Positions 558 to 44,625 of a stretch of 64,000 nucleotides of DNA are shown one piece after another. A program made the translations under genes and the position numbers. Source of the DNA: Methanosphaera sp. (GTDB lineage Archaea > Methanobacteriota > Methanobacteria > Methanobacteriales > Methanobacteriaceae); NCBI GenBank assembly GCA_017430835.1, contig JAFRMD010000120.1, positions 1 through 64,000 of the forward strand, given 5' to 3'. How positions within the stretch are numbered: the stretch's first letter is position 1; the number at the start of each line of letters is the position of its first letter. The notes below the pieces were generated by a model that saw nothing but the letters and a program-made list of their open reading frames with translations, searched no databases and was not told the origin of the DNA.

Positions 558-1399
558 TTCTCTTTTAGTTTCATTATTAGTTTTTCCACATCTTCATCGT
601 AAGCTATTACTTTACCTATAGCTTTTAATTCAAAATCAATTAATACATTATTCATCCGTAGGTCATCACCATCACGATAATTATACCTAATATACCATAT
701 CTCATTAGTAGTGTGTTTCACATACCAACATTCACCATTACCTATATGTGGATTCGGTGGAAATAATGGATTACTTACAATATAATCATCACCAACGTCA
801 CCAGTATATAATTGGAATTCACCATAAGGTGTTTCCACTACACTGAAAACTTCATGTAAACGGTCAACTATGTCAAATATTTCAACCTCACTTAACTGAT
901 TACCCGTTTCCATAATATCATCTTTAGTTATCTCCTGATTACAAACCTTTAACTCATCACGAACATTCAATACTTCCTCCACTTTTTCAGGATTACTTGT
1001 AACCCAACCCACATAACCAACACTATATCCAAGGTCAACCTCAGCCGGTGTTAATTTTACAAAGTAATCAGCAACCAAGTTCCAAGTAGTATAAGGTAAA
1101 GTATCCGATAACTTATACAAATCCTGCATTGTATTATAATCAGTTCCAAAATAAGTTAAATGAATATTCGATAAAGTTTCAGTAAAAGTCTCCACACTCA
1201 ATGATTTCTTACCACAGCATGGACAATACACCTCACCATCAATAAACAAATAAGGTGTAGGACTGTCATGACAGTTACAATAAATAGGTGTACCACAACG
1301 ATACAATCTTTTATCCTCACCGAGAGTAGCATTAATAGTAACTAGTTTATTTTGATTGTTTAATATTCTGAAACGTATATTGGCTTTACTCATAATCAT
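554..1399 (-). CDS. hypothetical zinc-binding protein, 281 aa
   Basis: The N-terminal 70 residues contain CxC and CPCCGKK clusters (YCNCHDSPTPY, VYCPCCGKK), which look like a zinc ribbon. The remaining 210 residues are mixed alpha/beta with no motif I can name. An internal ATG two codons downstream (MSKANIRF) is an equally good start, and neither has a clear ribosome binding site. The gene overlaps the Ntn-hydrolase-like gene upstream by 14 nt and the next gene by 4 nt, so the three are likely co-transcribed. Confidence 0.75.
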   Translation of the reverse strand: MIMSKANIRFRILNNQNKLVTINATLGEDKRLYRCGTPIYCNCHDSPTPYLFIDGEVYCPCCGKKSLSVETFTETLSNIHLTYFGTDYNTMQDLYKLSDTLPYTTWNLVADYFVKLTPAEVDLGYSVGYVGWVTSNPEKVEEVLNVRDELKVCNQEITKDDIMETGNQLSEVEIFDIVDRLHEVFSVVETPYGEFQLYTGDVGDDYIVSNPLFPPNPHIGNGECWYVKHTTNEIWYIRYNYRDGDDLRMNNVLIDFELKAIGKVIAYDEDVEKLIMKLKEK

Positions 1400-1994
1400 A
1401 TATTATATGTATATCCGAGTTAGTATCACAATAGATAGTGTTTACTCCACAACTAATAATAGCTTGCTGAACCATATTAACACGATTCAAATGCTGATGA
1501 TAATGGAGGTTAGTGTATAATGAACCAATAGCTACTTTCCAACCAGACCAGATAACTGCATAATCTGTATGCACATGATCTATTCCAAAACTATTAGTTA
1601 ATTCATAAATTTCACCATCATAAATTATTAACACATTACTTTCACTATTGAATTTATCCTCTTTTAATCCTAATAATTTTTCATCCATTAATTGTGTTTT
1701 CAAATCAGATAATAAACATGTGTATAAGTAATCTATGAAGTTAATATTTTCATTTATAGGTGGTATTTTGAATTTATATTCAAGGAATCCGTCTAGGAAT
1801 CCCCATCCAGCTAATATGAAATATATTTTTCTTGTACCGATAACATTTTCATATCCGTCAATTATTTCCAGTTCTCTGCAGACATATTTCTTTTTAACTG
1901 TGGCTTGTATTTCATCTCCAAGTGTTGCTTGCCTGTCTGTGCCAATTATTATTCTATGATTTTTCTTGTCTTTTAATGCGATACCTATAGTCAT
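1386..1994 (-). CDS. proteasome beta-subunit-like Ntn hydrolase
   Basis: A 202-aa protein that resembles the proteasome beta/HslV N-terminal nucleophile fold. After removal of Met1 the mature N-terminus would be Thr (MTIGIALKDKK...). With that Thr as residue 1, the segment IIIGTDRQATLGDE puts an Asp at 19 and Lys residues at 33-35, matching the beta-subunit Thr1/Asp17/Lys33 triad with a two-residue insertion. Further on, SNVLIIYDGEIYELTNSFGI and VIWSGWKVAIGSLYTNL match the family's beta strands and the 'GsGs.yAlGaly' segment. Length (about 200 aa) fits the family. This is inferred from sequence pattern only; substrate and assembly state are unknown. It is the first gene after a 750-nt noncoding stretch and heads a short cluster running to position 1. 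Confidence 0.7.
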   Translation of the reverse strand: MTIGIALKDKKNHRIIIGTDRQATLGDEIQATVKKKYVCRELEIIDGYENVIGTRKIYFILAGWGFLDGFLEYKFKIPPINENINFIDYLYTCLLSDLKTQLMDEKLLGLKEDKFNSESNVLIIYDGEIYELTNSFGIDHVHTDYAVIWSGWKVAIGSLYTNLHYHQHLNRVNMVQQAIISCGVNTIYCDTNSDIHIIYDYE

Positions 1995-2740
1995 GATAAA
2001 TATAATAAAAAAAAATTTAAATTAGGGGGGAAAGAGGTTAAAAAGAAAGTTATTACCAAACCCTTTTATTTTATTTTTTTGAAACAAAAAAAACGTGACC
2101 ATCATTTTTTTTTCAACAAATATATAAAAATACTCTCCTCTCTTTTTTTTAAATATCCCATTCTCCCCTTTTTTTTAGTGAAAAAAAAACACATGAGAAT
2201 ATAAAAGTGAAAGTTTGGATAAAAAAAAATATTTTTCTCATTTTATTGGGGAATTTTTTTTTGTTTCACGCCCCGTGATTCATTATATTTTTAAGAAGGT
2301 GAATTCTTTCTTAAATTATATATTGTTTTTTACTTAAATTGAAAAATATTATGAAGACTTAAAAACTCTTAATGTTTATTTTTATTTTTTTGAAAAACCT
2401 GCGGAAGTACAATTGAAATTATTTCCAGACTAATTTAATTTTTTTTATTCCCCTTAAAAATATTTTTTTTTTATAAGTTTCCAAACTTTTACACTTTACT
2501 CATTCTTGATGTGATTTTTTTTCTCCCCTATATATTCAAAGAAAAGCTAAATGCTTTTTTTCCCACATATTGTTTTTTTTTCCTCACACAAAAATTTTGG
2601 ATGTTTGTGATCATTGGAAAAAAAACAAACTTATTTTTTTCCAAATAAGATTAATATGCTATGCTATAATATTAAATATAATAAGTTATACTATTTATAG
2701 TTTATGGTAGTTAATATAAAAAAAATAATATAAAAAGAAT
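1995..2740. other. long AT-rich noncoding block
   Basis: About 745 nt without a convincing ORF, dominated by A and T homopolymer runs. It holds a candidate TATA box (2119-2130) for the Ntn-hydrolase-like gene, an 11-bp stem-loop (2614-2624 pairing with 2634-2644, TTGGAAAAAAA/TTTTTTTCCAA), and an imperfect inverted repeat whose arms at 2203-2236 and 2456-2497 share AAAGTTTGGA and a run AAAAAAAAATATTTTT. Confidence 0.6.
2119..2130 (-). promoter_or_regulatory. candidate TATA box for the Ntn-hydrolase cluster
   Basis: The minus strand reads TTTTTATATATT, a fair archaeal TATA box, about 125 nt before the start codon at 1994. This would give a leader of roughly 100 nt. The AT-rich background makes this call weak. 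Confidence 0.35.
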
Positions 2741-2759
2741 AAAAAGGAGATTATTCTCC
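2741..2759 (-). terminator. hairpin plus T-run terminator
   Basis: GGAGA/TCTCC stem with a 4-nt loop (2746-2750 and 2755-2759) overlapping the stop codon of the gene at 2751, followed on the minus strand by TTTTTATTCTTTTT. This is a plausible end of the transcript covering 3086-2751. Confidence 0.5.
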
Positions 2760-3086
2760 GTATTCCCATCTATTGCAGGAATCATGACTCATAATCAGTT
2801 TCTCATTAACTTCACACCATAAATCACCACTGAACCTTAATGTACGGTGCTCACAATTACTACAATTATGCACCTCACTTTCAACAGTTAATCCATGTTC
2901 TTGTATTGTTTTCTCTAATACTCTGATACGTTCTCTTTGCTCCAATACAATTTTCTCATACTGGTTTAATTTACTAGCTATAGCTATTGCATCATCCTGT
3001 TTAGGAGTGTAATAGCTCCTCCAATTCACTTCATCTATTAATATGTAGTGGTGGTTATTTTCTAAATCAGTGTGGTATCTTTCCAT
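2751..3086 (-). CDS. small coiled-coil/zinc protein of the MTENKRF-like family
   Basis: 111 aa with the same layout as the tandem array at 5.6-8.3 kb: a short polar N-terminal domain, a helix (AIASKLNQYEKIVLEQRERIRVLEKTI), and a C-terminal CSNCEHRTLRFSGDLWC...SCNRWEYGE zinc-finger-like tail. The spacing CxxC-x12-C-x12-C-x-W recurs in the protein at 5865-6191. Function unknown; likely structural zinc. Confidence 0.75.
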   Translation of the reverse strand: MERYHTDLENNHHYILIDEVNWRSYYTPKQDDAIAIASKLNQYEKIVLEQRERIRVLEKTIQEHGLTVESEVHNCSNCEHRTLRFSGDLWCEVNEKLIMSHDSCNRWEYGE

Positions 3087-3128
3087 ATGTAATCCTCCTT
3101 TAATATATAATAAGTAGAAGTATAATTT

Positions 3129-3431
3129 TTATACTTCTACTGTGATTACCCCATTTAACTCTTCATCATCGATTGTGAAACTTACATTTGTGACTTGATC
3201 ATATTTTTCAGTGATGTATTCTGTGATTTCACTGAGATAATCTTCACCACCCCATGCTGCGTTGCATGATGAGTCAAATCCTCCTCTTACTTCACAGTCT
3301 AGTGTGAAGTGGTCGAGGTCTATTTTTTCTACTCCGATGTATCTGAGTTCTTGGTAGAATTCTTCACCGAGGTTGTTTTCGATTTCTTCTGCGAGGTTTT
3401 CAATTATTTCTTTTTGGGTTTTGATTTTCAT
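3129..3431 (-). CDS. hypothetical acidic protein, 100 aa
   Basis: Acidic alpha/beta protein starting MKIKTQKEIIENLAEEIENN. The first six residues and the whole ribosome binding leader (GGAGACAAAAATAATG) are shared with the gene at 34644-34937, although the rest of the proteins differ. The coding start therefore carries the recurring AAAACCCAAAAAGAAA motif in codons 3-8. It is driven by the clear TATA promoter at 3503-3513. Confidence 0.8.
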   Translation of the reverse strand: MKIKTQKEIIENLAEEIENNLGEEFYQELRYIGVEKIDLDHFTLDCEVRGGFDSSCNAAWGGEDYLSEITEYITEKYDQVTNVSFTIDDEELNGVITVEV

Positions 3432-3459
3432 TATTTTTGTCTCCTTTTAATTTTTTTTA

Positions 3460-3513
3460 GTGTATACTTTTGTATTCACCTATATTAATATTGGTTTTCA
3501 TAGTATATAAACT
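3460..3513 (-). promoter_or_regulatory. TATA promoter with palindromic operator-like site
   Basis: The minus strand reads AAGTTTATATACTATG (TATA box at 3503-3513), about 75 nt before the start codon at 3431. Downstream at 3460-3479 lies GTGTATACTTTTGTATTCAC, an almost perfect palindrome (8-bp arms, one mismatch) that also occurs in the 10.9-kb promoter. The T-rich 3' end of the preceding transcript (3520-3570) abuts the box. Confidence 0.7.
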
Positions 3514-3572
3514 TAATGGTACAAAATATAAAAAAAATATACAAAAAAGAAAAAAAAGAAGAATGAGAATAT

Positions 3573-3719
3573 CTAATCCTCAGTAACATACAAATTAATC
3601 AAAACCTTCTCCTGACCACGAGACCTAACACGAGCCTCCTCCAAACCACCATACTTACTAATAATACGCTTAACACCAATATAATCCAAACCATTACCTC
3701 TACCATCAATCCAATCCAT
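3573..3719 (-). CDS. small hypothetical protein, 48 aa
   Basis: Short ORF MDWIDGRGNGLDYIGVKRII... ending VLINLYVTED. A GGGGGG tract lies 10 nt before the ATG. Codons are strikingly G/T rich compared with neighbours, as in other last genes of transcripts here. It sits between the exonuclease gene and the next promoter. No family recognised. Confidence 0.6.
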   Translation of the reverse strand: MDWIDGRGNGLDYIGVKRIISKYGGLEEARVRSRGQEKVLINLYVTED

Positions 3720-14644: not shown

Positions 14645-15102
14645 AATATAGTTTTCTTCAATTCTTCTAATGATTCTCTTATTTTTTTACTGCGTTCTTT
14701 TATTTCTGCATTATATCCTTTAAACCATAACTTTTCATTCTGACTTATTTCACCATACACTGGACTTATTTCACTCGTATACTCATCCTTTTCATAACCT
14801 GTTATTTCAGGTTCAGGTTTCACTATATTATAATTAAAAAAGTTTAAATCACTAATTCCACTATGAACTTCATCAATAACTTCTTTTATTTCTTCAGGTA
14901 AAGTCTTAGTATTCAAATAATTTATATATTCTTTAGCAGTTTCCTCATCAGCTACTACTAAGTCAGGTAATTCATCAGTTAAATCTTGGATTTTCACTTT
15001 TTTAACATCATTTTTATGTTTTATAACTTCCTCCGGTGTTAAGTTTTCACCAATATAATGAACTATACGAAACCTACCAGTATTTCCAACTTTCATTTCC
15101 AT
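14641..15102 (-). CDS. hypothetical acidic protein, 153 aa
   Basis: Acidic alpha/beta protein (MEMKVGNTGRFRIVHYIGENLTPEEVIKHKND...). Contains DELPDLVVADEETAKEYINYL and a helical C-terminus SKKIRESLEELKKTIL. No family recognised. Confidence 0.75.
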   Translation of the reverse strand: MEMKVGNTGRFRIVHYIGENLTPEEVIKHKNDVKKVKIQDLTDELPDLVVADEETAKEYINYLNTKTLPEEIKEVIDEVHSGISDLNFFNYNIVKPEPEITGYEKDEYTSEISPVYGEISQNEKLWFKGYNAEIKERSKKIRESLEELKKTIL

Positions 15103-15154
15103 TTATTTTACTCCATCATTTTATTCTTTTTTTATTTTGGAATTCCTACTCAAT

Positions 15155-15313
15155 TTATAATCCCCATTTATTTTTTACTATATTATAGTAATCATTTAAT
15201 AATGTTATTAATTGTTTAGCATGGTATTTATTATTTAAATCTAATACTCTACCAGTTTCATTGTCTTTAACAAAGATTTTTTCATCTTTTACCCTTAATT
15301 CAAACTTCTCCAT
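15155..15313 (-). CDS. small hypothetical protein, 52 aa
   Basis: MEKFELRVKDEKIFVKDNETGRVLDLNNKYHAKQLITLLNDYYNIVKNKWGL. The 'RV.DEKIFV.DN.TG....LN.KY.AK.L..LLN' layout is again like the N-terminal domain of the MTENKRF family, without a coiled coil. Confidence 0.65.
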   Translation of the reverse strand: MEKFELRVKDEKIFVKDNETGRVLDLNNKYHAKQLITLLNDYYNIVKNKWGL

Positions 15314-15322
15314 ATTTTCAAA

Positions 15323-15529
15323 TCAATCCATTTGGTAGTTTATGAAGTATCTGCCAATTACACATGCTCCCATTCCTAAACCGAAGATAATATAAAATAG
15401 TATATCAATTACTTCAAGTATCCACACATCAACAGAAGAATATGATTTTAACACCATACCTATACTGAATAAGATTAACATTAAAATTAAAGTCATAACA
15501 TCAAATTTAATTACACTAATCTTCCTCAT
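15323..15529 (-). CDS. small membrane protein, 68 aa
   Basis: Two predicted transmembrane helices: VMTLILMLILFSIGMVL and VIDILFYIIFGLGMGACVIG, joined by a short loop. Size and topology would also suit a holin, but it is in the early region, away from the lysis gene at 36913, so I would not call it one. Confidence 0.75.
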   Translation of the reverse strand: MRKISVIKFDVMTLILMLILFSIGMVLKSYSSVDVWILEVIDILFYIIFGLGMGACVIGRYFINYQMD

Positions 15530-15532
15530 TTT

Positions 15533-15781
15533 TCACCCTCTCCTTTCTTTCAGTGAATAATAACTCTCACTACTTACACGTTTAACTACTAATTTTACAC
15601 CATCTTCCATATCAGAGTTGCACCATAAATCAAAATCAGTTATATGGTAATATTCACGATCTAAACCATGATGTTTACACTTAAACCAAATTGGATTCCT
15701 ATGAAATTTCATTGGATGATTATTCAATAAATACTCCCCACAGGTTTTATCACTAGTTAAACATAAGCATCTGCATTTCAC
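15533..15781 (-). CDS. cysteine-rich protein, 82 aa
   Basis: MKCRCLCLTSDKTCGEYLL...WFKCKHHGLDREYYH...LWCNSD: six Cys and several His, suggesting one or two zinc sites. ATGA overlap with the AP2-like gene upstream. No family recognised. Confidence 0.75.
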   Translation of the reverse strand: MKCRCLCLTSDKTCGEYLLNNHPMKFHRNPIWFKCKHHGLDREYYHITDFDLWCNSDMEDGVKLVVKRVSSESYYSLKERRG

Positions 15782-15990
15782 ACGTTTATCCTCCGTGTTA
15801 TTGGTATTCCAAGGTCTTCTTTTATCCGCATCAATTCTTTTTTATCCCAGTTACATTTTTCTAATTCTTGTACTACTTTTTCTGCATCCTCCAATTGTTT
15901 ATATGTACCAAAACTTACTACTTTACCATTTATTTTTCTTCTTATACGGTAATTACCCCATATTTTATCATAAGAAATATACTTAACCAT
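15778..15990 (-). CDS. single AP2-like DNA-binding domain protein
   Basis: 70 aa: YISYDKIWGNYRIRRKING, then SFGTYKQLEDAEKVVQELEKCNW. A minimal version of the domain found twice in the 13209 gene, followed by a short basic tail ITRRINV. Likely a small DNA-binding regulator. Confidence 0.7.
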   Translation of the reverse strand: MVKYISYDKIWGNYRIRRKINGKVVSFGTYKQLEDAEKVVQELEKCNWDKKELMRIKEDLGIPITRRINV

Positions 15991-16261
15991 AATCTTTAAT
16001 TATTTTATTTTTTTTTATTATTCTGAATTTATCCGTTAATTTCAAATCCATACAACGATTATTAGGTAAAACTAACCTTAAAATCATATCATTAACTATG
16101 AAACTAGCTTTTTCGATTTGTATTAGATTTAATTCAACACCATAATACTCTGATTGTATGATTATCTCCTGTGAGTATAATTCACTAGCTGAAGAATTAT
16201 TTAATGTATCTATTAATTTTTCAACTTGGTTAATAACCTCCTGATTAACCATTTTTACCAT
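15983..16261 (-). CDS. hypothetical protein, 92 aa
   Basis: Starts MVKMVNQEVINQVEKLIDTL with GGGAGG directly upstream, which fixes the first ATG. Beta-rich C-terminal half ending KKNKIIKDYG. The leader contains a variant of the recurring CCAAAAAGAAA motif near 16305-16316. Confidence 0.75.
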   Translation of the reverse strand: MVKMVNQEVINQVEKLIDTLNNSSASELYSQEIIIQSEYYGVELNLIQIEKASFIVNDMILRLVLPNNRCMDLKLTDKFRIIKKNKIIKDYG

Positions 16262-16334
16262 TGTCCTCCCTCGAATAATATCATATTTTTTTGTGTGCGA
16301 AAATTTTCTTTTTGGATAAAAAAAATATAATAAT

Positions 16335-16679
16335 TTATTTTATTATTTCAAACAAATAAGTTACCAAACCAATTGATTTATTTCCCTCATAATCTTCATG
16401 GATTTCACGAGTAACACCCTCAAAAGTAACCTTATACTTTTCACAGAATCTATCCACAAATTCATCACTGAATTCTTTAGGATTATATAAATGAAACACA
16501 ATATATTTCCCACTATCATTCAAGAAAACATCAAAAGTTACATTATAATCATCATAGAAACCATGTGTAAACTCTTCGATTTCATCGGTTAAATCATGTT
16601 TATATAGGAAACTATTAATTTCAGATTCACGATACATCCTTAATAACTCAGCACCAGAGTAATCTTTATTAAGCCTCAT
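16335..16679 (-). CDS. hypothetical protein, 114 aa
   Basis: I start it at MRLNKDYSGAELLRMYRESEI because GAGAGGTG lies about 10 nt upstream; a longer frame to 16781 would overlap the next gene by 79 nt. Alpha/beta with a Tyr/Phe-rich centre (FTHGFYDDYNVTFDVFL). No family recognised. Confidence 0.75.
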   Translation of the reverse strand: MRLNKDYSGAELLRMYRESEINSFLYKHDLTDEIEEFTHGFYDDYNVTFDVFLNDSGKYIVFHLYNPKEFSDEFVDRFCEKYKVTFEGVTREIHEDYEGNKSIGLVTYLFEIIK

Positions 16680-32660: not shown

Positions 32661-32697
32661 ATAAAAGGTTAAAAATACTTATCAATAACTTTAACCT
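32661..32697 (-). terminator. recombinase terminator hairpin
   Basis: AGGTTAAA (32666-32673) pairs with TTTAACCT (32690-32697), 16-nt loop, overlapping the 3' end of the recombinase gene and followed on the minus strand by TTTTATTTTTTATTATTTTTTT. Confidence 0.55.
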
Positions 32698-33820
32698 CTT
32701 CATCACTAAGATTATCAGAAACAATCTTCTCCAAAACATCCATACGGCTAGTTAAATTAGAAACTTCTTCTGTTTTACGAACCAACTCATTTTCTAAACG
32801 GACAAATTCAACAGTTTTAACATCCAAATGTTTAACTTCTAAATTAATTGTCAATGCACCCATATGCTCCATATACTTAGCTTTCAACTTCGCAGGATCC
32901 TCCATAAAATAACTACTATCAGTCTTATTTTTAGATTTACCTTGTAAATCATTAACAGTATCTAAAGTCATACCCGCATTATATAATGTACTAGCATGAA
33001 ATTTACGGAGCATATGAGCTCTAAACTTCACATAATTATTTTTACCAACAGTACCTAAACCTAAAGTATTGTTCACATCACGGAACAATTGCATTAAATG
33101 TAATTGTGTGACTTTGAATAATCTATCACTATTCCTTAATCCTTTACGTGTTAAAAGGTATGAGCATATTTCATTAAATGCTTCTGGACTGCAGAATGCA
33201 TAATAAACTTTCCCTGTTTTACGTCTTTTGATTTCAAAACAAGGTACAACATCATCACGACCGTATAAGTTATGTATTATCTCGTATATATCATCAGATT
33301 TATAGTATTCTTCTACTGATTTAATGAAGTCAGATATTGTTAATCCTAGAGTTTCTGCAGATGCACAGCCACTGCTGGAGAAAAATAGTATGATTGCTCG
33401 GTGCATTGGTGTTGTTATTTTCAATGCTTCACGGATTTCCTCTTTTGTAGGTAAATCATTATATCGAATAATACTTTCTTCAGCTTGTTTTTCACTTATA
33501 GTTGGTAATTCATGGAGTTCTATTTCGAAGTGTTTGTATACTGTTAATATTTTACTGAAATTCATTTTTGCTGTACTTAGCATATAATTATTGTATAGGT
33601 AGGTTCTGAAGTTCAGTAATCTTTTTCGTATTGTTCTTCTTTTCCATGGTATTTGTTCATCTTCTTCTTTTTCAGCTTCTTTTAACATTTCAGTTAAGGA
33701 CATTTTGTTGAATTTTATGTATTTTCTTAGTACTAGTCGGTATAGTAATTCTGTTCTTTCTGAAAGGTTTCTTGAGATTGATATCTCTTTTATTAGTAAT
33801 TCATCTGTCTCCTCAATCAT
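32669..33820 (-). CDS. int: tyrosine recombinase / integrase
   Basis: 383 aa. An N-terminal SAM-like arm/core-binding domain (1-120), the catalytic domain with beta-strand Lys residues (EIKRRKTGKVYYAF, about 196-209), HxxR in AHMLRKFHAS (His269, Arg272), and nucleophile candidate Tyr304 in KTDSSYFMEDPAKLKAKY. The usual box I Arg (GLRxSE) is not at its place: FFSSSGCASAETLGLTISDF reads Ala153; this variant I recall from methanogen integrases. A C-terminal coiled coil (VRLENELVRKTEEVSNLTSRMDVLEKIV) is extra. It is the only site-specific recombinase in the window and so the first candidate both for integration and for inverting the fibre segment at 42.4-43.6 kb. Confidence 0.9.
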   Translation of the reverse strand: MIEETDELLIKEISISRNLSERTELLYRLVLRKYIKFNKMSLTEMLKEAEKEEDEQIPWKRRTIRKRLLNFRTYLYNNYMLSTAKMNFSKILTVYKHFEIELHELPTISEKQAEESIIRYNDLPTKEEIREALKITTPMHRAIILFFSSSGCASAETLGLTISDFIKSVEEYYKSDDIYEIIHNLYGRDDVVPCFEIKRRKTGKVYYAFCSPEAFNEICSYLLTRKGLRNSDRLFKVTQLHLMQLFRDVNNTLGLGTVGKNNYVKFRAHMLRKFHASTLYNAGMTLDTVNDLQGKSKNKTDSSYFMEDPAKLKAKYMEHMGALTINLEVKHLDVKTVEFVRLENELVRKTEEVSNLTSRMDVLEKIVSDNLSDEEVKVIDKYF

Positions 33821-35030: not shown

Positions 35031-35107
35031 AGACAAGTAGGAGATTCGAACTCCTGAAATAGTGGTTTTGCAGACCACCGCATTATAGACCACTCTGCCA
35101 ACTTGTC
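35031..35107 (-). tRNA. tRNA-Cys (anticodon GCA)
   Basis: Acceptor stem GACAAGT/ACTTGTC (7 bp), anticodon stem GTGGT/ACCAC around loop CTGCAAA giving anticodon GCA, T arm AGGAG-TTCGAAT-CTCCT, and discriminator U73 as expected for tRNA-Cys. CCA is not encoded. The D arm is weak (3-bp GCA/TGC stem) with a long loop containing GTGG. A T-rich tract follows. It lies between small viral genes, so it is probably a viral tRNA and not a host attachment boundary. Confidence 0.9.
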
Positions 35108-36912: not shown

Positions 36913-37941
36913 CTAAATTGTTAATGCACAAATACTTTTCTGACTTATTCCTTTCATATAACCTAACTCAGTAGATTTAGTTCTAGTTTCAATATAACCA
37001 CAATAAGTACCCGAACCACAACTACTACCTAAACTATTTAAAACAATCACATTACTACCAGATACACTTTTAGGGACTTCATAATGACCCCAATTGTATC
37101 TATAGAGAATATGAGTGAACATTGCACCATTAGTGATTAATGATTGGAATTTACTCCATCTAGAAGTATCATTCTTACCTAAATCACTGAAATTATACCA
37201 TTTAATTTTAACATTTTTCTTATAGGTTTTATTGAACATTGCAACAGCAGTTTCAATACCTTGATGACTAGTACCTGAAGATGTGGTTCCAGCCCATTTT
37301 GCAATAGTTGATTCAGCAACCTTAATACCAGTCAAACGGTAAAAACACTGTTGAAGACTGTTGCACGCACAAAAATACCCAGTACACTGACCAAGACCAC
37401 TACAACCACTATTAGTCATGTATGGGTTTAATTTAGTCTTAACAGATGATTTAGTGGTTGTATTTGTGGTTGTAGTTTTTGTTGTTGTTTTAGATACTTT
37501 AGTTTCACTAGTGTAAAACCTACATTTACTAGGTAAAACCTTATTATGATTAGTATACCATACAATGATTTTACTTAAACTGTAAATGAAAACTCTTTGA
37601 TGTATTCTTTTACCATTATACGTACTATAGTTAGGTAATTTACGGTTTTCTTTATCTTCAATGAAATTAGAGTAGTTTTTTGCTAATTTTTTATAATCTT
37701 CTTCATTAATATCGAATTTTACTGTTTCACCTTGAGGTTTAGGTGCTTTACCAACACTAATGACAGTTATATCTTTACCAATATTATTAACAGATTTAGC
37801 TAGTATATAACCGATTTGTGGATAAGTATATTTTACATTATCTACTGTTAAAGTAGATGGTAATTTACCGTTTTTTTCAACGTATGCTTTTGTTTTTTTT
37901 GCTATTGTTTGTATATTTTTAAATGTTATTTTTGTTGCCAT
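36913..37941 (-). CDS. pseudomurein endoisopeptidase (C71-type lysin)
   Basis: 342 aa. Two N-terminal pseudomurein-binding repeats (about 5-50 and 85-138, with NGKLPSTLTVDNVKYTYPQI and RKLPNYSTYNGKRIHQRVFI), a Thr/Lys linker (148-170), and a C-terminal cysteine-peptidase domain like PeiW/PeiP. Candidate nucleophile Cys191 in GYFCACNSLQQ and His286 in NWGHYEV. The third position, normally Asp, reads Asn302 (VIVLNSLGS), as in some C39-like enzymes. Cleaves the cross-link peptide of pseudomurein, so it should lyse the host. This is the strongest evidence for a Methanobacteriales host. Confidence 0.93.
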   Translation of the reverse strand: MATKITFKNIQTIAKKTKAYVEKNGKLPSTLTVDNVKYTYPQIGYILAKSVNNIGKDITVISVGKAPKPQGETVKFDINEEDYKKLAKNYSNFIEDKENRKLPNYSTYNGKRIHQRVFIYSLSKIIVWYTNHNKVLPSKCRFYTSETKVSKTTTKTTTTNTTTKSSVKTKLNPYMTNSGCSGLGQCTGYFCACNSLQQCFYRLTGIKVAESTIAKWAGTTSSGTSHQGIETAVAMFNKTYKKNVKIKWYNFSDLGKNDTSRWSKFQSLITNGAMFTHILYRYNWGHYEVPKSVSGSNVIVLNSLGSSCGSGTYCGYIETRTKSTELGYMKGISQKSICALTI

Positions 37942-42417: not shown

Positions 42418-43011
42418 ATAAAAAAAAACAACAACGTATCTTACTACTCAAAAGATACAGGAGATTTATATATTAAAGCAAGTTGTAACAACATCGAAAG
42501 TTCAAGTGTAGCAATAACAAACAAATGGTATAATAACTCTCTCACAACCTCACACGATATGTTCACACCATCAACAACTGGAATATCCATCTCTCATTCA
42601 AGCAATGGAGTTTCAATAACTGGAAATGGAATCAATAGCGACCACTTTGCAAGTTTAGATATTCCAATGCCTACTAATTATGAATTAAGTGTTGAAATAA
42701 CTGGGATTATAATAAGTAATAAGTATAGTGCAGGGATTAGTTGTGAAGGAATATTTTGTGAAACTTCTGGGAATAATCTAAATTGGGGGAGAATTGTCGA
42801 TTTAGGAGGCAATGTTACATCTACTTCTCCTATATTAAAGGTTGGAGATACTTTAAAGTTTATTGTAAACAATGGAGTTGTAACTTGTTATCTGAACAAT
42901 ACTCAAAAGTATCAAAAACAAGCCGATAGCAGTAATCATAGTGGATTTAAAATCAAATTATATTCAAATAGAAATGTAACAATCAAGAATATGGTAATTA
43001 CAAAACTATAA
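42418..43011 (+). CDS. silent alternative C-terminal fibre cassette (no start)
   Basis: The only convincing plus-strand coding sequence. The frame opens after a TGA at 42415 and has no ribosome binding site; the first ATG (42559) is far inside. Its protein, VSYYSKDTGDLYIKASCNNI then ESSSVAITNKWYNNSLTT, matches VYYYSKDADVLNIKCSCNNI then ESSSVQIEDCWKYDSLTT in the minus-strand fibre gene opposite, then diverges, ending VTIKNMVITKL versus TVFKNLKIKSL. Both cassettes are about 190-197 codons and converge with overlapping stops (CTATAA, 43006-43011). Read as the switched-off partner of an invertible fibre tip. Confidence 0.85.
   Translation: MKKNNNVSYYSKDTGDLYIKASCNNIESSSVAITNKWYNNSLTTSHDMFTPSTTGISISHSSNGVSITGNGINSDHFASLDIPMPTNYELSVEITGIIISNKYSAGISCEGIFCETSGNNLNWGRIVDLGGNVTSTSPILKVGDTLKFIVNNGVVTCYLNNTQKYQKQADSSNHSGFKIKLYSNRNVTIKNMVITKL
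42436..42456 (+). repeat. inversion site, left copy
   Basis: GTAT-C-TTACTACTCAAAAGAT. The last 16 nt are identical to the inverted copy at 43582-43597; GTAT is shared as well, with one differing base between. In the plus frame it encodes VSYYSKD. Confidence 0.8.
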
Positions 43012-44625
43012 AGACTTGATTTTTAAATTCTTGAATACTGTCCATCTTCCATTGTGGGTTTTAAATCTTAAAGTATTGTTCTGTGTAACATTAGTTATTG
43101 TACCTTTCAATACTCCATTTTGATAAATCTTCATAGATTGTGTTGATGAGTCAAATTCATATTTTAAAGTATCCCCATTTATCCAATCCCAATTCTCAAG
43201 ATTATACTCTATAATTGGAGCAGAACTGTCAGTAATATTGTATTTGTAATATCCGATTTTTGAGTAAGTTACATCTCGAACAACAGATACATTTTCAACT
43301 ACACATTCTGATGTATAATCAGTTGTTACAAATGAATTGATGTCTATTTCAACACTATATTTATTTGGGAGTGTTAAATCAAGATATTTTATTAATGTGT
43401 CTGTTGTAGCAGTTCCTTTTATCTTTACTCCATCATTGGAGTATGTGAGTGAAGCAGAACCTTTGGTAACACTTAATCGATTGTTATTTGTGGTTAATGA
43501 GTCATATTTCCAACAATCTTCGATTTGTACTGATGATGATTCAATATTGTTACAAGAACATTTTATATTTAAAACATCTGCATCTTTTGAGTAGTAATAT
43601 ACGGAACATATACCGGACGAATCAGTAGTCGCAGTTCCAATATTCGAGATAACAGTACCAGCATCATGGTCAACAATATCGAAACTGACTGTTTTTCCAA
43701 CAACCGGGTCGTTGTTACTGTCTAATACTGTTGCGGTTAAAAGTGCTGACTCACCATCAACATATGAGAGAATAGCAGAATCGGAAGGACTGCCAATTGC
43801 TTGATTGTTACTATCACAGACAGTGGCGGTTAATGTTACGCTTGATACAGGTACATGTACGCTTACACTGTTACTGTTACTTGCACTGTCTTCGTAGAAG
43901 TCGTTTGCTGAATCATAGATGGCGTGTATGCTTAAATTCCCAGTCACGGTTGGTGTGTATGAGTAACTGTATTCTCCATCGATGTTGGTTGTGCAGGTTC
44001 CTAGTAAAGTGTTACCATTGTAGATTTCAATGGTTGCTCCTTGTATTTCTCCACCGTGCATATCAACATTACTTTGGCTTGTGTCATCATAACTGGATGT
44101 TAATACTCCTGTTATATTGAATGGTACGCCGACTGATGCACTACTTGGGCAGGTGCATGTTATACTAGTGTCTAGTTCTATTCCACGTTGTGTTGGTGGA
44201 ACACTCAACACTTTAGCAATATTAGTAGCTAAACCATCATTAACGGATGCTCCTATTACTCCCATACTGGTTAAGTTAGATACTAATGCTGCATTAGCAT
44301 TGTAAATATTCTGTGCATGACTATTATTATTTACAGTTAATGTTATTGTGTTACTTTGATGTATAATTTCAGATACTTCTTCTGTTTGTAGTACTATATT
44401 TATTATTCCAGTGGTTTGTGGATAGTATTTATATATTAATAATCCATTAGTAACACTATCACTAACATCTACTAATTCAGTTAATTCATTATTAACTATA
44501 TTATATAATTTGAATTCTTCATAAGTATTGGTTAAATTAGAGACATCACATACGAAAGTTACACTGTGTCCTAACTTAAAATTATTATTATCATTTATTA
44601 AAGTTAAATCATTATTAATACTCAA
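43006..44625 (-). CDS. Ig-like tail fibre/adhesin with switchable C-terminus
   Basis: 539 aa, TTG start with GGAGGGGG 7 nt upstream. Fixed part: an N-terminal domain (1-100), then two or three bacterial-Ig-like domains (ITCTCPSSASVGVPFNITGVL..., VTLTATVCDSNNQAIGSPSD...VDGESALLTATVLDSNNDPVVGKTVSFDI). From residue about 342 the sequence lies inside the invertible segment: a linker and a 150-residue lectin-like beta domain (DGVKIKGTATTDTLIKYLDL...WDWINGDTLKYEFDSSTQSMKIYQNG). The tip should bind the host surface; the current orientation expresses this cassette. Confidence 0.85.
   Translation of the reverse strand: MSINNDLTLINDNNNFKLGHSVTFVCDVSNLTNTYEEFKLYNIVNNELTELVDVSDSVTNGLLIYKYYPQTTGIINIVLQTEEVSEIIHQSNTITLTVNNNSHAQNIYNANAALVSNLTSMGVIGASVNDGLATNIAKVLSVPPTQRGIELDTSITCTCPSSASVGVPFNITGVLTSSYDDTSQSNVDMHGGEIQGATIEIYNGNTLLGTCTTNIDGEYSYSYTPTVTGNLSIHAIYDSANDFYEDSASNSNSVSVHVPVSSVTLTATVCDSNNQAIGSPSDSAILSYVDGESALLTATVLDSNNDPVVGKTVSFDIVDHDAGTVISNIGTATTDSSGICSVYYYSKDADVLNIKCSCNNIESSSVQIEDCWKYDSLTTNNNRLSVTKGSASLTYSNDGVKIKGTATTDTLIKYLDLTLPNKYSVEIDINSFVTTDYTSECVVENVSVVRDVTYSKIGYYKYNITDSSAPIIEYNLENWDWINGDTLKYEFDSSTQSMKIYQNGVLKGTITNVTQNNTLRFKTHNGRWTVFKNLKIKSL
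43582..43602 (-). repeat. inversion site, right copy
   Basis: Reads GTAT-A-TTACTACTCAAAAGAT on the minus strand (16-nt core at 43582-43597), coding VYYYSKD in the expressed fibre gene. Confidence 0.8.

What the first reader, a model, noticed from the sequence alone, without database searches (positions are those of the whole stretch)
42436..43602. Invertible tail-fibre tip segment in a methanogen virus
The only plausible plus-strand coding sequence in the window (42418-43011) has no start codon or ribosome binding site and encodes a diverged copy of the C-terminal 190 residues of the convergent minus-strand fibre gene (43006-44625). Both copies begin at an inverted 16-bp repeat, TTACTACTCAAAAGAT (42441-42456 plus; 43582-43597 minus), in the same reading frame. 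The stop codons overlap at the centre (CTATAA). Inversion would replace the lectin-like tip and leave the Ig-like stalk intact. This is the architecture of host-range switches such as the Mu G segment, here in an archaeal virus and with a different site. The only recombinase in the window is the tyrosine recombinase at 32669-33820, 9 kb away; a dedicated invertase may lie outside.
Basis: partly seen in the sequence, partly recalled or inferred. Interest (0 to 1): 0.95.

Follow-up and report, generated by a model that had tools for sequence, protein, structure and literature searches.

The report
Flippable tail-fibre tip, methanogen virus
In a virus of gut methane-producing archaea, the gene for the tail fibre ends in a predicted lectin-like tip that faces a second, start-less tip between two inverted copies of a short repeat; a virus-encoded recombinase likely flips this piece so that the virus would show its hosts a different tip, and a related provirus carries more than thirty such spare tips.

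Summary
In detail: a 16-bp exact inverted repeat (22 bp with one mismatch) bounds a 1.1-kb segment with two convergent, paralogous fibre tips in one frame, the plus-strand one without a start. It is not a one-off: I found 19 facing-tip pairs on 14 contigs (Methanobrevibacter genomes, viral contigs) and larger arrays; a provirus whose tail genes align with the window's carries 33 site copies: one active, one direct and 31 inverted silent tips, all open. The window's active tip (98%) also occurs on a different stalk, joined at the repeat, and the window's stalk (76%) with another tip. A near-identical contig encodes, 3.8 kb beyond the window's edge, a tyrosine recombinase of a clade that neighbours tip arrays in viruses and BREX pglX or hsdS in hosts; this, not a Gin-type serine invertase, is the likely invertase. 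Inversion itself was not seen: the fibre stands on 11 database contigs in one phase, and no opposite-phase relative was found. Tail-fibre inversion is known in the haloarchaeal viruses phiCh1 and phiH1, so this is a new, recurrent variant of a known kind.

The parts
42435..42456 (+). left inverted repeat (proposed recombination site), 16-bp exact core 42441-42456
43582..43603 (-). right inverted repeat, 16-bp exact core 43582-43597, inside the fibre gene
42457..43581 (.). proposed invertible segment between the repeats (1,125 bp), filled by the two tips
42418..43011 (+). silent tip frame, 197 codons, no start codon before the homology; predicted all-beta, lectin-like (pLDDT 73)
43006..44625 (-). 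active tail-fibre gene, 539 aa, TTG start preceded by GGAGGGGG; Ig-like stalk
43009..43518 (-). [not shown]
43522..43752 (-). Big_1 Ig-like domain in which the junction falls
43006..43011 (.). CTATAA: last Leu codon and stop of both tips on opposite strands
32669..33820 (-). tyrosine recombinase, 383 aa, of the group outside the invertase-like clade (integrase or second candidate)

Best explanation
The segment 42435-43603 carries two alternative C-terminal tips of one tail fibre on opposite strands between inverted repeats, and a virus-encoded tyrosine recombinase likely inverts it, which would replace the predicted lectin-like tip and so, presumably, the receptor that the virus binds. Shown: the repeats, the shared frame, the start-less paralogous tip, the same layout in 19 pairs on 14 contigs, and tips and stalks found in other combinations joined at the same point. 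Predicted: the lectin fold. Inferred: that inversion happens, that the enzyme is the one at G001:C52:95958-97013 just outside the window (second candidate: window 32669-33820), and that the switch changes host range. The window is the two-tip form of a layout that reaches 33 site copies in a provirus with an alignable tail module.
For: Repeat and frame. Facing tips: 6 of 266 facing frame pairs in 19 fetched stretches score >=75, all six at fibre-tip loci; further pairs in L188, L189, L191, L192, L193, L196, L200, L227, L245 and, below the cut-off at score 65, G033:C54. 12 of these 19 pairs overlap by only 4 or 6 nt at their ends. 9 of 14 silent frames checked have no start codon before the homology (without L177, an hsdS pair). 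Codons of identical residues agree in 35 of 42 cases within the first 12 aligned codons of the junction against 149 of 269 further on, five loci (p = 3e-4). G003 array: 31 of 31 inverted cassettes open for >=120 codons, 0 of 62 in the other frames; ATA-AAA-GAT fixed in 25 of 25 examined, other conserved residues with mixed codons. Modular exchange: P0002 carries the window's active tip at 98% on a 54%-identical stalk; P0009 the window's stalk at 76% with a tip of no clear likeness. Invertase clade: a 33-row set, support 98/93, holds the 11 array-, 6 pglX- and 2 hsdS-labelled rows; viral loci with this recombinase have facing pairs in 6 of 10, with the other type in 3 of 45 (p = 5e-4).
Against: No inverted molecule was seen. 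P0001, the window's fibre, stands on 11 contigs, so in one phase, and none of 35 proteins listed is the window's stalk with the window's silent tip. Window and G001 share the phase. Viral scans with each tip found no other carrier; the silent tip in 137 genomes gave G001 and two remote matches at 25-30%. No two viruses compared share an orthologous tip (best 36% identity). The candidate invertase lies 46 kb from the site on the contig; its nearness to the second fibre locus assumes circularity, which is not shown. Neither recombinase type has an evident first catalytic arginine at the usual place (SSGxAxxE; motif recalled). 5 of 14 silent frames do have a start codon upstream. Exact repeats are only 7 bp in 2 of 19 pairs.
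Confidence: 0.72

Rival explanations
1. The facing tip is an archive for homologous exchange: tips move between fibres and viruses by ordinary recombination or gene conversion at a conserved Ig-domain border, with no dedicated inversion.
For: P0002 and P0009 combinations; in G019 two contigs with different stalks end in one tip over exactly 141 bp, which reads as one tip behind two stalks; some array cassettes lie in direct orientation.
Against: Gene conversion needs no opposite orientation, yet 31 of 32 silent cassettes with the exact site in G003 are inverted and the two-tip loci face each other (though the script looked for facing pairs only); fixed codons at the junction; the recombinase clade beside arrays.
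Confidence: 0.17
2. The inverter is the recombinase inside the window (32669-33820), with the outside one serving the second fibre locus or integration.
For: It lies 9 kb away on the same strand as the fibre, and a relative lies 2.3 kb past a facing-tip pair in G033:C54.
Against: Its group has facing pairs in 3 of 45 viral loci, the other type in 6 of 10; it falls outside the clade that holds the array, pglX and hsdS neighbours.
Confidence: 0.2
3. The plus-strand tip is a dead inverted duplicate.
For: It has no start codon; the fibre stands in one phase on 11 database contigs.
Against: 197 codons stay open; the layout recurs in 19 pairs; silent frames are open in 31 of 31 G003 cassettes.
Confidence: 0.06

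Closest known systems
Invertible tail-fibre module of haloarchaeal viruses phiCh1 and phiH1 (Int1); like module in ChaoS9
   Same: archaeal tailed viruses; two fibre ends in opposite orientation, one uncoupled from a start; a tyrosine recombinase (passages of PMC6210493, PMC6471424, PMC8651126)
   Different: there the recombinase gene lies between the two fibre genes; here the 1.1-kb segment is filled by the tips, the site is in an Ig-like domain, and the recombinase is elsewhere
Shufflon of plasmid R64 (Rci) (features recalled)
   Same: C-terminal alternatives of one protein between short repeats, cassettes in both orientations, tyrosine recombinase; resembles the multi-cassette relatives (G003, G039, L193, L196)
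   Different: the window has only two tips; viral fibre, not pilus tip; no comparison with Rci made
Mu G segment and Gin (recalled)
   Same: inversion replaces the fibre end and leaves the shaft
   Different: serine invertase; no serine recombinase found in G001
Invertible hsdS and BREX pglX loci (recalled)
   Same: kin of the outside recombinase sit beside these genes in host genomes; L169 and L177 have facing partial copies
   Different: the target is a methyltransferase specificity part, not a fibre

Membership tests
phiCh1/phiH1 type invertible fibre module | two fibre C-termini in opposite orientation, one without start | tested here: met
phiCh1/phiH1 type invertible fibre module | recombinase gene between the two fibre ends | tested here: not met
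   segment 42457-43581 is filled by the tips
phiCh1/phiH1 type invertible fibre module | inversion observed | not testable with these tools
   no reads; one phase on 11 contigs
Mu G / Gin serine invertase systems | serine recombinase in the element | tested here: not met
   PF00239: 0 matches in G001, which carries the same DNA; the control rings in 10 of 14 genomes
R64-type shufflon | several cassettes bounded by the same short repeat in both orientations | tested here: not met
   one segment in the window; relatives have 33 site copies (G003) or cassettes on both strands (G039, L193, L196)
R64-type shufflon | Rci-family recombinase | not tested
   no comparison with Rci was made
tyrosine recombinase family | sequence kinship to phage integrases | tested here: met
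   phrog_1 E 2.6e-11 (window) and 2.2e-10 (outside); Pfam matches stay below their cut-offs
tyrosine recombinase family | full set of catalytic residues | tested here: inconclusive
   HxxR and a C-terminal Tyr are conserved, first Arg not evident in A4/A5; motif recalled

The most novel reading that the evidence does not exclude
Tailed viruses of gut methanogens run an inversion-driven archive of receptor-binding tips, from two (this window, whose virus also has a second such fibre locus) to more than thirty, driven by a tyrosine-recombinase clade that their hosts use to switch the specificity of BREX and restriction systems: one kind of switch on both sides of the arms race.
Probability: 0.5. 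Interest if true: 0.9.

Novelty: new variant of a known kind. Interest (0 to 1): 0.78.

Why it matters
It gives a testable account of how viruses of major gut methane makers may keep up with varying hosts. It shows the two-tip switch and the 30-tip archive as ends of one layout, and it links it to a recombinase clade that also neighbours host defence genes. If right, host prediction from one consensus genome is unsafe for these viruses.

Tried and rejected
Gin-type serine inversion: no serine recombinase in G001. A relative in the opposite phase: not found by stalk, by tip, by tip-against-tip comparison or in the protein database. My first reading that G007 shows the opposite phase, from an A/C difference at the site, was dropped: two loci and one base decide nothing. 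L177 was first counted among the fibre tips; Pfam shows it is a facing pair of hsdS parts, so it was taken out of the counts (20 pairs to 19) and moved to the host side. Start of G033:C86 joins 42 bp of stalk and site to another tip, as an inverted molecule would, but its first 49 bp are a fold-back, so it may be an artefact. G039:C273 repeats 53.5 kb of a 77,099-bp genome and ends in the array; the two copies agree where compared, so no phase evidence. G019's shared 141-bp contig ends equal a common assembler word length (k = 141, recalled) and fit a duplicated tip as well as a switch. Two papers on methanogen viruses that I recall (DOIs tried) are not held, so earlier notice of such loci cannot be excluded. 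Searches of the held library for methanogen or Methanobrevibacter virus with invertible, inversion, adhesin, tail fiber or shufflon listed no such report; apart from PMC8651126 (passages), listings only.

The script looks only for facing pairs, so it cannot show that facing is the rule. An Ig-like domain match supports the fibre reading in L188 (both pairs), L189b, L191b, L192, L227 and L245; no Pfam match at E 0.01 for L200, L116 or the L191a and L196 frames, and no informative one for L193.

Full report
What is there. The minus-strand fibre gene 43006-44625 starts at TTG behind GGAGGGGG and encodes 539 residues with Ig-like domains (Big_1 at 292-368). Facing it, frame 42418-43011 (+) opens after a stop, has no start codon before the homology, and aligns with the last ~200 residues of the fibre (score 205). 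The homology starts at CGTAT[C/A]TTACTACTCAAAAGAT, inverted, in the same frame (YYSKD). The two tips end in one hexamer, CTATAA, that reads Leu-stop on both strands. The 16-bp core is the longest non-simple inverted repeat of the region; 2 of 400 resamples reach its length.

The virus. The window's own assembly is not held. Genome G001 carries the same DNA (99.98% over 18 kb, same phase) on a 98-kb contig, C52, with terminase, portal and head genes. C52 holds a second fibre (1208-3705) that shares its first 368 residues at 45%, with a facing silent tip, a different tip family (LRR-like) and its own 17-bp inverted repeat near the same point of the Ig domain.

How common. Facing tips were found by a script that scores facing frames. 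Beyond the two on C52: G007:C24, G047:C17, G042:C168 and, at a lower score of 65, G033:C54, and among 79 loci fetched by recombinase L188 (2), L189 (2), L191 (2), L192, L193, L196, L200 (2), L227 and L245, besides the G039 array. A further one, L177, proved to be hsdS. Of the 19 fibre pairs, 12 overlap by 4 or 6 nt at their ends. The best exact repeat near the junction is 9-30 bp in 17 of 19 and 7 bp in L188a and L191b. As a control, 13 of 6000 random frame pairs reach the cut-off, true paralogues included, and all 6 flagged of 266 facing pairs are fibre-tip loci.

The large form. In G003:C71 the tail genes align with the window's from the tape-measure region on, and genes past about 42 kb look like host genes by eye, so I call it a provirus. 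The fibre gene 15087-16469 is followed by one direct and 31 inverted cassettes of about 440 bp, each starting at ATAAAAGAT: 33 exact copies, 2 plus and 31 minus; at least one more frame has a variant site. All 31 inverted frames stay open for at least 120 codons, 0 of 62 in the other frames, and in 21 of 30 the stop lies one base into the next site. The cassettes are 18-30% identical to the first (18 aligned), yet ATA-AAA-GAT is fixed in 25 of 25 examined. Smaller arrays with cassettes on both strands are in G039, G033, L193 and L196. In the family, 5 of 138 genomes match the cassette alignment.

Signs of exchange. In the protein database the window's fibre P0001 is one sequence on 11 contigs. 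P0002 has a different stalk (54% over 84 columns) and, from YYSKD on, the window's active tip at 98%; P0009 has the window's stalk at 76% over 346 columns and then a tip of no clear likeness. So the junction is a real exchange point. No protein among 35 is the window's stalk with the window's silent tip, which speaks against a frequent switch in the sequenced material.

The enzyme. G001 has no serine recombinase by PF00239. C52 has three tyrosine recombinase-like genes: the window's (32669-33820), and two at 95146-95961 and 95958-97013, about 3-5 kb beyond the window's left edge. The last is 52-62% identical to recombinases near the arrays of G039, G033 and G017. A tree of 82 recombinases puts it in a 33-row set (98/93) with the array-, pglX- and hsdS-labelled rows; the window's enzyme is outside. 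PglX was confirmed by PADLOC models for L173 and L174 and by tblastn for the others; hsdS by Pfam for L177, L182 and L185. 14 rows of the set bear no label. Viral loci with this type have facing pairs in 6 of 10, with the window's type in 3 of 45. So the outside enzyme is the better candidate, though its distance to the window's site is large and neither enzyme was tested.

Known kind. phiH1 and phiCh1 switch two fibre genes by inversion with a central tyrosine recombinase, and the partner is uncoupled from a start (passages of PMC6210493; PMC6471424; PMC8651126). The window works like that, but the recombinase is not in the segment, the site lies in an Ig-like domain, and relatives extend it to an archive. 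I found no report for methanogen viruses in the held library, with two relevant papers not held.

Verdict. Observation confirmed; mechanism by inversion likely, unobserved; a new variant of a known kind, and a recurrent one.

Noticed in passing
L119 15087-19999 and L117 1-11117 (G003:C71:15087-31117): Provirus fibre gene with one direct and 31 inverted silent tip cassettes at a fixed ATAAAAGAT site.
   Followed up: yes
L030 1208-3705 (G001:C52): Second fibre of the same virus with its own facing silent tip, 17-bp repeat and LRR-like tips.
   Followed up: partly
L169, L172, L173, L174, L252, L254-L258, L260; L177, L182, L185: Kin of the outside recombinase sit beside BREX pglX (L169 with a facing partial copy) and beside hsdS (L177 and L182 with hsdS parts on both strands) in host contigs.
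   Followed up: partly
L107 and L098 (G019:C36 and C40 ends): Two contigs with different stalks end in the same tip over exactly 141 bp.
   Followed up: partly
L153, L154 (G039:C273): Contig of 130,604 bp repeats itself with period 77,099 bp: a circular or permuted virus genome.
   Followed up: partly
L155 1-90 (G033:C86): Contig start is a fold-back that joins stalk end to another tip.
   Followed up: partly
L035-L038 (G001:C72:37738-42690): Four tyrosine recombinase genes close together in genome G001.
   Followed up: no
L030 1-200 and last 100 bases of L034: Ends of contig C52 have higher G+C; the first bases looked like a bacterial nrdR (recalled), so the contig may be chimeric at its ends.
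   Followed up: no
window 35031-35107: tRNA-Cys gene between the endolysin-like gene and the recombinase.
   Followed up: no
window 36913-37941: Pseudomurein-binding repeat protein with an endolysin-like end, beside the fibre module.
   Followed up: no
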